A stretch of 64,000 bases of DNA from Ochrobactrum chromiisoli (lineage in GTDB: Bacteria; Pseudomonadota; Alphaproteobacteria; Rhizobiales; Rhizobiaceae). Each line of letters opens with the position of its first letter. Within the stretch, counting starts at the first letter, position 1. Both the position numbers and the translations under genes were made by a program. The notes under the pieces were generated by a model. That model was not told the DNA's origin. It saw only the letters and a program-made list of their open reading frames with translations, and searched no databases. Of this stretch, positions 3,412 to 10,807 are shown piece by piece. Location of the stretch: the NCBI RefSeq assembly GCF_026241335.1, contig NZ_JAPHAV010000002.1, positions 1 to 64,000 of the forward strand. Reading direction: 5' to 3'.

Positions 3412-4200
3412 ATGGCAGAAAAGATCGATGCGCTTGAAGAAGAGAAGGAGCAGAAGGCTCCCCGCAGCCAGACACTGCTACGCGGGCTCGATATCCTTGA
3501 CGCTGTGGCCGATAGGTCTCGCACGATCCAGGAAATTGTCGCGACTACCGGTCTGACCTATAGCACGGTGCACCGCATCGTTTCAGTCCTTCTCGAACGC
3601 CGGTTCCTTAAGGCCGAAAACGCGCGTGAGTTCGGGCTTGGGCCACGCCTCATAGAGCTTGGCTTTTCTGCCTATTCTCGGATTGATCTGGTGCAGGTCG
3701 CACGACCCTTTCTTGAGAAGCTTTCGCAACTTACTTGCGATACGGTGCATCTGGCGCAACGCGAGGATTGGGAGGTGACCTATCTTGACAAGCTGCGTGG
3801 CGCACGCCCCGTCGAGATTAGCTCGCGGATTGGCGGTCGCAAGCCGGTGATCTCGACCGGTGTAGGCAAGGCGCTGATGCTAGACGCACCGATTGCTGTC
3901 CTGTCGGAGCTCTATCAGCGCGACCACACACTTTTGCCCGGAAACATGACCGAGGCCGACTGGCTGATCCAGATGGCAAACTACCGATCCGGCGACTATG
4001 CCTATGACCTCGGGGAGGATCAGTCCTCAATCCGGTGCGTTGCAGCTCCCTTGCGCGATGCGACGGGCCGCGTGGTGGCTGCGATCTCTGTCTCCTCAAC
4101 GCTCGAATTCATGCCGCCATCACGCATGCGCGACCTCGTTTCGGAAGTTCAGCGCGTGGCGCGCGCCATTTCTTCTGAACTTGGCGCGAGGACAGGCTAA
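3412..4200 (+). CDS. IclR-family transcriptional regulator
   Basis: 262 residues with the IclR layout: a winged helix-turn-helix in residues about 18-80 (RGLDILDAVAD, then TTGLTYSTVHRIVSVLLERR) and an effector-binding domain in about 95-258 (LAQREDWEVTYLDKLRG, STGVGKALMLDAP, CVAAPLRDATGRVVAAISVS). The ATG at 3412 has AAGGGG seven bases upstream. Such regulators usually control neighbouring catabolic genes and bind small acids. It precedes the FAD dehydrogenase (convergent) and the TRAP-aldolase operon, so it is the obvious local regulator. Whether it activates or represses is not visible. Confidence 0.93.
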   Translation: MAEKIDALEEEKEQKAPRSQTLLRGLDILDAVADRSRTIQEIVATTGLTYSTVHRIVSVLLERRFLKAENAREFGLGPRLIELGFSAYSRIDLVQVARPFLEKLSQLTCDTVHLAQREDWEVTYLDKLRGARPVEISSRIGGRKPVISTGVGKALMLDAPIAVLSELYQRDHTLLPGNMTEADWLIQMANYRSGDYAYDLGEDQSSIRCVAAPLRDATGRVVAAISVSSTLEFMPPSRMRDLVSEVQRVARAISSELGARTG

Positions 4201-4331
4201 AGCCCGCCACGCGCATGTCAGCCGTGGTTTCCGCTCAGAAGACATCATGCAAGCGAAAGGATCAGGCTCTTTCTGCAGAAGAATGAAGCCCTGACTTGGA
4301 CCGCCGCGGCGCAATATCAACCGGCTTTGGT

Positions 4332-5729
4332 TCAGAACACCTTTCCGGGGTTGAGAATACCCTTCGGGTCTAAGCTTGCCTTCAAGTGCCGTAGCATACC
4401 GAGTTCGTTTTTCGAACGGCTGTAAGCGAGCCAAGGCTTTTTATGCAGGCCGATACCATGTTCGGCCGAGACAGATCCACCATAGGTGCGGATGATCTCG
4501 TAGACAGTCTTCTCAATGCCATGGCCGGTCGGATCAATCTCGGAAATGGGGCCGGCCACGAGGTGGATATTGCTGTCGCCGGCATGACCGAAAAAGATCA
4601 CCTGCAGGGCAGGGAAGGCCGCCGTCAGCGCGGCGCGAATTTCTTCCACGCAGTCTCCGATGCATGCGAGCGGAACCGAAACATCGAAATTGATAGTGGG
4701 CGCGCGGCGGGACAGGATCTCGGCGATACCGTCGCGCAAGGACCAGAAGGTCTCCACGTCGCGCTGTGATTGTGCCACGGCTGCGTCGATCAGAAGCCCG
4801 GTTTCGAATGCCGATTCCAACATGGTCTCGAACGCAGGTCTTTCGGCATCCGGATCGGCGCCCTGCATTTCGACCAGCACATAAATGGGATGATCCGGCT
4901 CAACGGGTGCGCGCATACCTGTTTCGGCCAGAACCGCTTGGTAATAGTCGTTCCACATCAGCTCGAATGCGGTGACCCGGCCGGAAAGTACGTGTTGCGC
5001 ATGTCGCAGAAGGCCTGCTGCCGCAGCAAAATCAGTCACGGCAACTAGCGCCGCATTTGCTCCGGCAACACTGGGATGCAGCTTCAGTACCGCCTTGGTA
5101 ATGACGCCGAGCGTCCCTTCCGAACCAATGAAGAGATGCTTAAGATCCAGCGCGGCATTGTTCTTTGGCATGCGGTTCATCATGGAAAGGGTTGTGCCAT
5201 CTGCCAGCACGACCTCCAGGCCAAGAACGAGATCGCGTGCCATGCCGTAGCGGATCACGCGATTGCCACCTGCGTTGGTGGCGATGTTGCCGCCGATCTG
5301 GCAGGAGCCGCGCGCGCCGAGATCGAGCGGGAAGGAGAAGCCTGCCTCCAGTGCCGCTTCCTGGATGCGCTGCAGAATACAGCCGGCACCAACCACCATC
5401 AGGCCGGAGGCGGCATCGATTTCCTCGATCCGGTCAAGACCGGCCAGCGAAAGCAGTACCGCACCCTCGCTCGGCACGGCGCCGCCGGCAAGACCCGAAC
5501 GGCCACCCTGCGGCACGACGGGGGTGGAAAAATCGTGGCAAAGCTTCAGCACGGCCGCAACAGCGGCTGCATCTCGCGGCGTGACCAGCGCCAGCGGCAC
5601 GCCGCCGCGCTCGTCACTCCAGTCGCGCAGCGCCGCTGCCGGCACTTCGCCGCCAGCCTTCAGGTTGTTCGCGCCGACGGCTTCCTGAAGGGCAGCGATA
5701 AGGGTCGCGTTCGGATTTTCGGGTTGCAT
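4332..5729 (-). CDS. FAD-linked 2-hydroxyacid dehydrogenase/oxidase (GlcD-like)
   Basis: 465 residues. The PCMH-type FAD domain spans about 40-220 with the pyrophosphate loop PQGGRSGLAGGAVP and the second motif GARGSCQIGGNIATNAGG; FAD-oxidase C follows with the metal-site segments FFGHAGDSNIHL and SAEHGIGLHKK near the C-terminus. This is the family of glycolate oxidase subunit D, D-lactate and D-2-hydroxyglutarate dehydrogenases, which oxidise 2-hydroxy acids to 2-oxo acids. No signal peptide. It is transcribed divergently from the TRAP genes across a 216-base spacer. In this setting I infer that it makes the 2-oxo acid consumed by the aldolase downstream. GC-rich codon use matches the TRAP operon, not the core genes. 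Confidence 0.9.
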   Translation of the reverse strand: MQPENPNATLIAALQEAVGANNLKAGGEVPAAALRDWSDERGGVPLALVTPRDAAAVAAVLKLCHDFSTPVVPQGGRSGLAGGAVPSEGAVLLSLAGLDRIEEIDAASGLMVVGAGCILQRIQEAALEAGFSFPLDLGARGSCQIGGNIATNAGGNRVIRYGMARDLVLGLEVVLADGTTLSMMNRMPKNNAALDLKHLFIGSEGTLGVITKAVLKLHPSVAGANAALVAVTDFAAAAGLLRHAQHVLSGRVTAFELMWNDYYQAVLAETGMRAPVEPDHPIYVLVEMQGADPDAERPAFETMLESAFETGLLIDAAVAQSQRDVETFWSLRDGIAEILSRRAPTINFDVSVPLACIGDCVEEIRAALTAAFPALQVIFFGHAGDSNIHLVAGPISEIDPTGHGIEKTVYEIIRTYGGSVSAEHGIGLHKKPWLAYSRSKNELGMLRHLKASLDPKGILNPGKVF

Positions 5730-9765: not shown

Positions 9766-9775
9766 GGAGATTGAG

Positions 9776-10807
9776 ATGAGCATCGAAGGACGCAAGATTA
9801 CCCTTCACGAAATGAGCCTGCGCGACGGCATGCATGCCAAGCGCCACCAGATCTCTATCGAACAGATGGTCGAGATAGCCAAGGCTGCCGACGAAGCCGG
9901 CATGCCGTGGATCGAGGTGACCCATGGAGACGGTCTGGGAGGCGCTTCCGTGAACTACGGCTTCTCGGCGGCAACCGACGAAGAATACCTTTCCGCTGTC
10001 ATTCCGCACATGAAAAAGGCCAAGGTATCGGCACTTCTCCTGCCCGGTATCGGCACCGTGGACACGCTGAAGCGCGCTATGGATTGCGGTATCTCCGGCG
10101 TGCGCGTCGCTACCCACTGCACCGAGGCCGATTGCGCCGAACAGCACATCACCTATGCCGCAAAAGCTGGTCTCGACAGCGTCGGCTTCCTGATGATGTC
10201 GCACCGCGCTGGCCCGGAAAAGCTGGTCGAACAGGCACTTTTAATGGAAAGCTATGGCGCCAACTGCGTCTATTGTACCGACTCGGCCGGCCACATGCTG
10301 CCCGATGACGTAACCGCCCGCATCACTGCCATCCGTGCCGCGCTGAAACCGGAAACGGAACTCGGCTTCCACGGCCACCATAACCTCGGCATGGGTATCG
10401 CCAATTCGGTGGCCGCCGTTGCCGCAGGAGCAAACCGCATCGACGGCGCGATCGCAGGCCTTGGCGCCGGCGCCGGCAATGCCGCGACCGAACTGCTGGT
10501 CGCGGTGTTCGAGCGCATGGGCGCCATCACCGGCGTCGACCTCTTCAAGATCATGGACGCCGCCGAGGATCTGGTCGTGCCGATGATGGATCGTCCGATC
10601 CGCGTCGACCGCGGTTCGCTGGTTCTCGGATATGCCGGCGTCTACTCGTCGTTCCTGCTGTTTGCCGAGCGCGCGGAAAAGCGCTACGGCGTTCCTGCCC
10701 GCGATCTGCTCCTGGAACTCGGCCGCCGCGGCATGATCGGTGGCCAGGAGGACATGATAGAGGACTTGGCTTTGACGATGTCTCGCGCCGCGAAGGAGTG
10801 TTGTTAA
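9776..10807 (+). CDS. 4-hydroxy-2-oxovalerate aldolase (DmpG/MhpE/BphI family)
   Basis: 343 residues. The active-site start LRDGMHAKRHQ contains Arg16, Asp17 and His20; the metal ligands His199 and His201 lie in GFHGHHNLGMG. It splits 4-hydroxy-2-oxo acids into pyruvate and an aldehyde, which the preceding dehydrogenase turns into acyl-CoA. I place the start at 9776 because AAGGAG sits seven bases upstream and the protein then begins MSIEGRKITLHEMSLRDG, as in the family; an upstream in-frame ATG overlaps the previous gene. No 2-hydroxypenta-2,4-dienoate hydratase gene is nearby, unlike classical meta pathways. The last residues are KECC, slightly shorter than usual. Confidence 0.95.
   Translation: MSIEGRKITLHEMSLRDGMHAKRHQISIEQMVEIAKAADEAGMPWIEVTHGDGLGGASVNYGFSAATDEEYLSAVIPHMKKAKVSALLLPGIGTVDTLKRAMDCGISGVRVATHCTEADCAEQHITYAAKAGLDSVGFLMMSHRAGPEKLVEQALLMESYGANCVYCTDSAGHMLPDDVTARITAIRAALKPETELGFHGHHNLGMGIANSVAAVAAGANRIDGAIAGLGAGAGNAATELLVAVFERMGAITGVDLFKIMDAAEDLVVPMMDRPIRVDRGSLVLGYAGVYSSFLLFAERAEKRYGVPARDLLLELGRRGMIGGQEDMIEDLALTMSRAAKECC

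What the first reader, a model, noticed from the sequence alone, without database searches (positions are those of the whole stretch)
3412..10807. Possible hydratase-free route: TRAP import, 2-hydroxyacid oxidation, aldol cleavage and acyl-CoA formation in one cluster
The aldolase/acylating-dehydrogenase pair (DmpG/DmpF type) normally ends aromatic meta-cleavage pathways and is joined by a hydratase and ring-cleavage genes. Here none of those is present. Instead the pair sits in one operon with a complete TRAP importer and divergent to a GlcD-like FAD dehydrogenase, with an IclR regulator. A simple reading: a 2,4-dihydroxy acid (or its 4-hydroxy-2-oxo form) is imported, oxidised at C2 by the FAD enzyme, split to pyruvate and an aldehyde, and the aldehyde is captured as acyl-CoA. 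I do not know a described pathway with exactly this set.
Basis: partly seen in the sequence, partly recalled or inferred. Interest (0 to 1): 0.75.

Follow-up and report, generated by a model that had tools for sequence, protein, structure and literature searches.

The report
Scavenging operon for a dihydroxy acid
A mobile set of seven bacterial genes appears to import a small dihydroxy acid, probably 2,4-dihydroxypentanoate, oxidise it, and split it with enzymes normally seen at the end of aromatic-ring degradation, a possible new feeding route that still needs a bench test.

Summary
An IclR regulator, a divergent FAD dehydrogenase, a TRAP importer, an acylating acetaldehyde dehydrogenase (AcDH) and a DmpG aldolase lie at 3412-10807; no hydratase relative was found in the genome. 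All seven genes recur together in 18 fetched genomes or plasmids, window included, of alpha-, beta- and gammaproteobacteria. Of the 80 nearest AcDH loci, 73 have a hydratase relative, 4 have TRAP plus FAD enzyme, none both, 3 neither. The FAD enzymes fall in one clade, while the TRAP-linked aldolase/AcDH pairs sit at four places in their trees. The FAD enzyme keeps the zinc and catalytic residues of D-2-hydroxyglutarate dehydrogenase but lacks the Lys and Asn strictly conserved for the second carboxylate. The aldolase keeps the residues for (4S)-4-hydroxy-2-oxopentanoate. The same FAD clade also follows salicylate meta-cleavage operons on three plasmids. Best reading: import of (2R,4S)-2,4-dihydroxypentanoate or a close relative, C2 oxidation, cleavage to pyruvate and acetyl-CoA. 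The substrate is inferred, not shown.

The parts
3412..4200 (+). IclR-family regulator
   Evidence: Pfam IclR_C and HTH_IclR; best NCBIfam models BhcR and KdgR, both far below cut-off
4332..5729 (-). FAD-linked 2-hydroxyacid dehydrogenase, D-2-hydroxyglutarate dehydrogenase group, second-carboxylate site changed
   Evidence: Pfam FAD_binding_4 and FAD-oxidase_C; R332, H382, H389, E423, H424 kept; A336, N347, F380, V391 in place of T390, K401, Y432, N443
5730..5945 (.). Divergent control region; a block at about 5777-5809 is conserved among relatives while much around it differs
   Evidence: alignment of seven relatives; the consensus scan found no sigma-70 site
5946..6953 (+). DctP, TRAP solute-binding protein
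   Evidence: TIGR00787 275 bits, cut-off 175; best solved relatives 7bbr, 4pdh, 4p9k, 4p47, 4pdd
7079..7561 (+). DctQ, TRAP small permease
   Evidence: Pfam DctQ
7558..8841 (+). DctM, TRAP large permease
   Evidence: TIGR00786 435 bits, cut-off 268
8854..9765 (+). Acylating acetaldehyde dehydrogenase (DmpF type)
   Evidence: TIGR03215 over cut-off; Cys131 kept in 96 of 96 aligned
9776..10807 (+). 4-hydroxy-2-oxovalerate aldolase (DmpG type)
   Evidence: TIGR03217 over cut-off; R16, D17, H20, L87, H199, H201, Y290 kept in 94 of 94 aligned
10968..11722 (.). IS4/5-type insertion element that bounds the unit downstream
   Evidence: 21-base perfect inverted ends; DUF4096 transposase domain in ORF 11271-11681
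2010..3007 (.). Probable insertion-element remnant upstream
   Evidence: 32-base inverted ends, 75% complementary; family not tested

Best explanation
It is a mobile catabolic unit for a small 2-hydroxy acid with a second hydroxyl at C4, most likely (2R,4S)-2,4-dihydroxypentanoate. DctPQM imports the acid. The FAD/Zn enzyme oxidises C2, giving (4S)-4-hydroxy-2-oxopentanoate, and passes electrons to the respiratory chain. The aldolase splits that into pyruvate and acetaldehyde, which the partner dehydrogenase turns into acetyl-CoA. IclR controls both divergent transcripts. No hydratase is needed because the key intermediate is reached by oxidation, not by hydration of 2-oxopent-4-enoate. Shown: gene set, conservation, exclusion of the hydratase at these loci, residues. 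Inferred: substrate, Zn, electron acceptor, regulation, channelling.
For: (1) 18 complete sets in three classes with at least three arrangements; some are near-copies (L138/L141, L134/L135). (2) Of the 80 nearest AcDH loci 73 have a hydratase relative (35% identity or more), 4 TRAP+FAD, 0 both, 3 neither; Fisher p 2.2e-5, kinship not corrected. (3) TRAP-linked aldolases and AcDH sit in four places; one clade rejected for the aldolase, p-AU 8.6e-79, quick tree of 48 of 94 rows, while the FAD enzymes fall in one clade, 99/97. Repeated combination of the same two parts argues that they work together. (4) FAD residues: catalytic and Zn set kept; no basic residue at the K401 place in 19 of 19 cluster enzymes and in 120 of the 120 listed homologues; two paralogues of the same genome keep K or R there and N at the N443 place. 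(5) Aldolase L87 and Y290, which in BphI meet the C4 methyl and enforce the (4S) form, are invariant. (6) The same FAD clade follows the sal meta-cleavage operon on pLIB119, pKF715A and a P. veronii plasmid. (7) L134 and L135 add an Ldh_2 dehydrogenase, as one would expect for the other C2 epimer. (8) 2,4-dihydroxypentanoic acids occur in nature, as 2-ethers in the Providencia alcalifaciens O31 O-antigen (passages of PMC10609480).
Against: No binding or activity data. Frigidibacter L004 has the unit with no FAD match in 33.7 kb. L133 has FAD and TRAP without AcDH/aldolase beside it; its genome's AcDH relatives are 57-58%. In L137, L139 and L140 only the FAD gene was found (L139 begins at a contig end). 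Of 18 betaproteobacterial FAD loci looked at widely, 10 have TRAP, AcDH and aldolase, 1 is cut and 7 do not have them all. N347 is Ser in L126 and L169 and Ala in L127. F380 and a small residue at the T390 place also occur in a paralogue that keeps Lys and Asn (L096) and in 3pm9, so only two of the four changes discriminate. In 11 of 16 cluster genomes some hydratase relative exists elsewhere. The solute-binding protein's relatives do not fix the ligand.
Confidence: 0.58

Rival explanations
1. The imported solute is 4-hydroxy-2-oxopentanoate itself; the FAD enzyme only recovers the reduced form that the cell's own reductases make.
For: Frigidibacter keeps importer, AcDH and aldolase without a FAD match; the FAD clade also sits beside sal meta-cleavage operons where no TRAP gene was found and the intermediate is made inside the cell.
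Against: Of 20 fetched sets with TRAP, AcDH and aldolase, 19 have the FAD gene. A 2-oxo acid is less stable outside cells (recalled chemistry).
Confidence: 0.2
2. The substrate is a homologue: 2,4-dihydroxyhexanoate (giving propionyl-CoA) or a 3-deoxy sugar acid such as 2,4,5-trihydroxypentanoate (giving glycolaldehyde).
For: Several of the best solved solute-binding relatives are ones I recall as sugar-acid binders, the ligands coming from no call; the IclR models include KdgR, recalled as a regulator of 2-keto-3-deoxygluconate use.
Against: L87 is invariant and L89 is Leu or Ile; in BphI L87 was proposed to lie at the C4 methyl. AcDH equals meta-cleavage enzymes at Cys131, N170, I171 and I195.
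Confidence: 0.2
3. The FAD enzyme serves another acid (D-lactate, glycolate, D-2-hydroxyglutarate) and is only a neighbour of the aldolase genes.
For: It occurs without AcDH/aldolase beside it in L133, L137, L139, L140, and two of these genomes, G1299 and G1276, gave no AcDH match at all; human D-2-hydroxyglutarate dehydrogenase also oxidises D-lactate.
Against: Linkage in three classes and beside a second operon type; residue pattern unlike the K/N pattern and unlike the genome's GlcD relative, which reads F, C, V, L at the four places.
Confidence: 0.1

Closest known systems
Lower meta-cleavage pathway (DmpEFG, NahLOM, MhpDFE)
   Same: AcDH and aldolase, same families over cut-off, same residues at the compared sites
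   Different: No hydratase and no ring-cleavage match; entry by import and 2-hydroxyacid oxidation
D-2-hydroxyglutarate dehydrogenase (human D2HGDH, PaD2HGDH, 3pm9)
   Same: Sequence family, Zn ligands, C1-carboxylate and C2-hydroxyl residues
   Different: Lys401 and Asn443, strictly conserved there, are Asn and Val here; Thr390 and Tyr432 are Ala and Phe
TRAP-linked 2-hydroxyacid clusters L142 and L143 (FAD enzyme 51-52%, ThDP enzyme, aldehyde dehydrogenase, TRAP)
   Same: Same logic: import, C2 oxidation, C-C cleavage, aldehyde oxidation
   Different: A ThDP-family enzyme and a CoA-independent aldehyde dehydrogenase family in place of aldolase and AcDH; the mandelate-like role is my inference

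Membership tests
DmpFG aldolase-dehydrogenase pair | Both families over curated cut-off and adjacent | tested here: met
DmpFG aldolase-dehydrogenase pair | Catalytic and specificity residues | tested here: met
   R16, D17, H20, L87, Y290 (94 of 94) and Cys131 (96 of 96) invariant
DmpFG aldolase-dehydrogenase pair | Physical complex with aldehyde channel | not testable with these tools
   DmpG communication domain and AcDH dimerisation domain present; the complex itself was not tested, structure prediction being switched off
Aromatic meta-cleavage pathway | 2-oxopent-4-enoate hydratase | tested here: not met
Aromatic meta-cleavage pathway | Ring-cleavage dioxygenase in the cluster | tested here: not met
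   (one query protein, window only)
Glycolate oxidase GlcD | Score over the GlcD models' cut-offs | tested here: not met
   269 and 172 bits against 568 and 897
D-2-hydroxyglutarate dehydrogenase | Zn and catalytic residues | tested here: met
D-2-hydroxyglutarate dehydrogenase | Far-carboxylate residues K401 and N443, strictly conserved in orthologues | tested here: not met
   N347 and V391 instead
TRAP transporter (DctPQM) | Three components together | tested here: met
2,4-dihydroxypentanoate pathway (proposed) | Substrate bound and oxidised | not testable with these tools
   needs purified proteins

The most novel reading that the evidence does not exclude
The FAD enzymes are a new subfamily of 2,4-dihydroxypentanoate dehydrogenases, and the mobile unit is a scavenger: it lives on the reduced end-intermediate that neighbours breaking aromatic rings by meta-cleavage leak, so that some ring-cleaving bacteria recover the loss with the same enzyme beside the sal operon while others without ring cleavage import and finish it.
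Probability: 0.25. Interest if true: 0.7.

Novelty: new variant of a known kind. Interest (0 to 1): 0.52.

Why it matters
It would add a peripheral route into the well-known aldolase/dehydrogenase end of aromatic degradation, with a named candidate substrate whose breakdown I did not find in the open-licence library (searches; of the 150 papers only 30 were listed, and I opened one of them, PMC3962088, for passages on the aldolase). It would give a function to a conserved flavoenzyme subfamily now easily taken for glycolate oxidase or D-2-hydroxyglutarate dehydrogenase, warn against reading DmpFG pairs as proof of aromatic degradation, and point to an unnoticed exchanged metabolite.

Tried and rejected
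Rejected: hydratase in trans in this genome. Rejected: glycolate oxidase (scores; the genome's GlcD relative has another residue pattern). Rejected: true D-2-hydroxyglutarate dehydrogenase. Led nowhere: DctP at E<=1e-100 in 397 genomes of the order found only the window; L047's DctP at E<=1e-120 in 399 genomes of its order only itself; FAD at E<=1e-140 in 385 genomes of the class only the window; L012's FAD in 194 of its order only itself. So the unit is rare in those samples, at those strict limits. Productive surveys: 35 genomes of the window's genus, 3 with DctP, window included, and 200 of the L082 genome's family, 21 with a FAD match. Of those 21, the query genome and 17 others were looked at over wide stretches, G1373 and G1264 over 4.4 kb only, G1286 not at all. 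Promoter scan: nothing. A search for an inverted repeat in the control region found none by my criteria. Papers on erythronate or Advenella with TRAP were only seen as listings and gave no ligand data, so ligands of the best solved binding proteins are recalled only. The plasmid overlap probability is descriptive, because three of the seven records are near-copies.
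Full report
WHAT IS THERE. The IclR and FAD genes converge; the FAD gene and the dctPQM-AcDH-aldolase run diverge across 216 bases. An IS4/5-type element with perfect 21-base inverted ends lies just downstream and a probable element remnant upstream, with a resolvase-family gene beyond: an accessory unit, in a contig that also holds housekeeping genes such as glmU. In the window's genus 3 of 35 genomes, window included, hold the DctP.

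IS IT A REAL UNIT? Yes. On plasmids of Shinella sp. HZN7, Neorhizobium petrolearium and Polymorphum gilvum 86-87% of the stretch matches at 81-82% identity; Thalassospira xiamenensis has it too. Some are near-copies: L138 and L141, L134 and L135. In L128 and L136 the IclR gene lies 5-6 kb from the FAD gene. In Marinospirillum the order differs (importer, AcDH, aldolase, then FAD). L082 has six, IclR not found on its 11.3-kb contig; L130 is cut by its contig end; Frigidibacter mobilis has six, without a FAD match. Of 18 betaproteobacterial FAD loci looked at widely, 10 have TRAP, AcDH and aldolase, L130 is cut, and 7 (L133, L137, L139, L140, L142, L143, L144) do not have all of them.

HYDRATASE. 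Of the 80 closest AcDH loci in the genome collection, 73 carry a hydratase relative (35% identity or more) in the fetched stretch, 4 carry TRAP plus FAD, none both, 3 neither (Fisher p 2.2e-5, kinship not corrected; some stretches are short contigs). The window genome has no hydratase match by family or protein. Of 16 cluster genomes searched, 5 have no match (G000, G398, G400 at E<=0.001; G816, G1284 at E<=1e-20) and 11 have some relative elsewhere, the best at 70-79% in two and at 33-47% in nine.

HISTORY. In quick trees of the aldolase and AcDH the TRAP-linked proteins need four changes of label. The alpha group stands beside a Paracoccus pair whose locus has neither hydratase nor TRAP; Marinospirillum beside Nitrincola, Rhodoferax beside Rhodoferax ferrireducens and the beta group beside other Burkholderiales, all three with hydratase and ring-cleavage genes. 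Several of these forks have support under 80. Holding the TRAP-linked aldolases together is rejected, p-AU 8.6e-79, on 48 of 94 rows (all 19 TRAP-linked, 29 of 75 others). Starred branches force four changes for the aldolase, two for AcDH. The FAD enzymes fall in one clade, 99/97, which also holds the FAD-only relatives, the sal-linked enzymes and Pseudochrobactrum enzymes outside such units. Whichever way the changes ran, one import-and-oxidation module is combined with different aldolase/AcDH lineages, most of them close to enzymes of known reaction.

RESIDUES. In human D-2-hydroxyglutarate dehydrogenase, Arg386, His434, His441, Glu475 and His476 serve Zn, C1 carboxylate and C2 hydroxyl; Thr390, Lys401, Tyr432 and Asn443 serve the far carboxylate, Lys401 and Asn443 being strictly conserved in orthologues, and mutation of Lys401 abolishes activity (passages of PMC7801405). 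The window enzyme keeps the first five (R332, H382, H389, E423, H424) and has A336, N347, F380, V391 at the other four. At the K401 place the 19 cluster enzymes read Asn in 16, Ser in 2, Ala in 1; none of the 120 listed homologues (of 7896 found) is basic there. Controls from the same genome: two paralogues (L096, L097) keep K or R at that place and N at the N443 place; the first also has Ser and Phe at the T390 and Y432 places, so those two changes do not discriminate. No curated family names these paralogues; that they are D-2-hydroxyglutarate enzymes is inferred. A GlcD relative (536 bits over its 419 residues, cut-off 568) reads F, C, V, L. So the cluster enzyme should act on a 2-hydroxy acid with an uncharged side chain; that Asn347 meets a C4 hydroxyl is a guess. 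In the aldolase, L87 and Y290, which in BphI were linked to the C4 methyl and the (4S) form (passages of PMC3962088), are invariant in 94 of 94 rows. Together these point to (2R,4S)-2,4-dihydroxypentanoate.

A SECOND CONTEXT. On pLIB119, pKF715A and a P. veronii plasmid, the sal operon (salicylate hydroxylase, catechol 2,3-dioxygenase, hydratase, AcDH, aldolase, decarboxylase, tautomerase, heme-binding protein) is followed by a FAD enzyme of this clade, about 72% identical to L131. No TRAP or IclR match was found beside it. Whether it is in the same transcript is not known. In the plasmid collection at least 7 of 11 records with this FAD subfamily also hold a close AcDH, itself found in 29 of 72,556 records, 20 of them listed; three of the seven are near-copies. 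The four others are Pseudochrobactrum; the one fetched reads Gly and Asp at two pocket places. A paper on an AN10-type sal operon calls nahX a gene of unknown function, and the word oxidoreductase does not occur in its text (passages of PMC5336314). The link suggests that the FAD enzyme's substrate is a relative of the meta-cleavage end-intermediate, for instance its reduced form.

VARIANTS THAT INFORM. L134 and L135 have a second binding protein and, upstream, a GntR regulator, an Ldh_2 dehydrogenase, an iron alcohol dehydrogenase and a succinate-semialdehyde-type aldehyde dehydrogenase. Ldh_2 enzymes act on the opposite C2 configuration (recalled). L142 and L143 combine a 51-52% FAD enzyme with TRAP, a ThDP enzyme and an aldehyde dehydrogenase: the same logic with another C-C cleavage. 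L133, L137, L139 and L140 look like loss of AcDH/aldolase, or of all but the FAD gene, beside similar neighbours; L139 begins at a contig end. AcDH searches of these four genomes gave relatives of 56-58% in two and none in two.

REGULATION. About 33 bases in the control region (5777-5809) are well conserved among the window, L126, L127 and L001-L003; L004, without the FAD gene, matches less well. This is compatible with a shared operator or promoter; binding is not shown and the consensus scan found no promoter.

NATURAL SOURCE. 2,4-dihydroxypentanoic acids are reported as 2-ether components of the Providencia alcalifaciens O31 O-antigen (passages of a review). Two carriers come from oil-polluted places by their record fields (Neorhizobium petrolearium and Frigidibacter mobilis), a weak hint of a link with hydrocarbon breakdown.

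LITERATURE. In the open-licence library one paper held 'TRAP transporter' with the aldolase and acetaldehyde dehydrogenase names; its passages show ordinary salicylate genes with a hydratase. Seven papers matched dihydroxypentanoate or dihydroxyvalerate names; I saw passages of three, two of them on the 3,4-isomer, and the listing of the rest; none was seen to treat catabolism. Subscription papers were not searched.

VERDICT. Ordinary parts in a conserved, testable combination that I found in no paper; mechanism well supported in outline, substrate inferred.

Noticed in passing
L170:9968-11398, L171:9968-11398, L172:9968-11401: On three Pseudomonas-group plasmids the salicylate meta-cleavage operon is followed by a flavoenzyme of this subfamily, after a heme-binding (HbpS-like in L170) gene.
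   Followed up: partly
L142:7210-13664 and L143:7132-13649: TRAP, FAD enzyme, aldehyde dehydrogenase and a ThDP enzyme together (in L142 also an arylmalonate-decarboxylase-like gene nearby), as if for a mandelate-type acid.
   Followed up: partly
L134:40-13355 and L135:5260-18544: Enlarged version with two solute-binding proteins, GntR regulator, Ldh_2, iron alcohol dehydrogenase and succinate-semialdehyde-type dehydrogenase.
   Followed up: partly
L133, L137, L139, L140: Related betaproteobacteria keep FAD plus TRAP, or only the FAD gene, beside similar housekeeping neighbours, as if the unit were lost step by step.
   Followed up: partly
window 13321-20766: Peptide/nickel-type ABC importer genes with an esterase-like and an amidase gene, a separate uptake cluster beside the unit.
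   Followed up: no
L015:2288-11940: Paracoccus sulfuroxidans AcDH/aldolase pair with neither hydratase nor TRAP match; an enoyl-CoA hydratase-family gene and ORFs that look like a branched-chain-type ABC importer and a CoA transferase lie nearby.
   Followed up: no
L173:7941-9332: A Pseudochrobactrum relative of the FAD enzyme carries Gly and Asp at two pocket places and sits near a peptide ABC importer and a CoA transferase.
   Followed up: no
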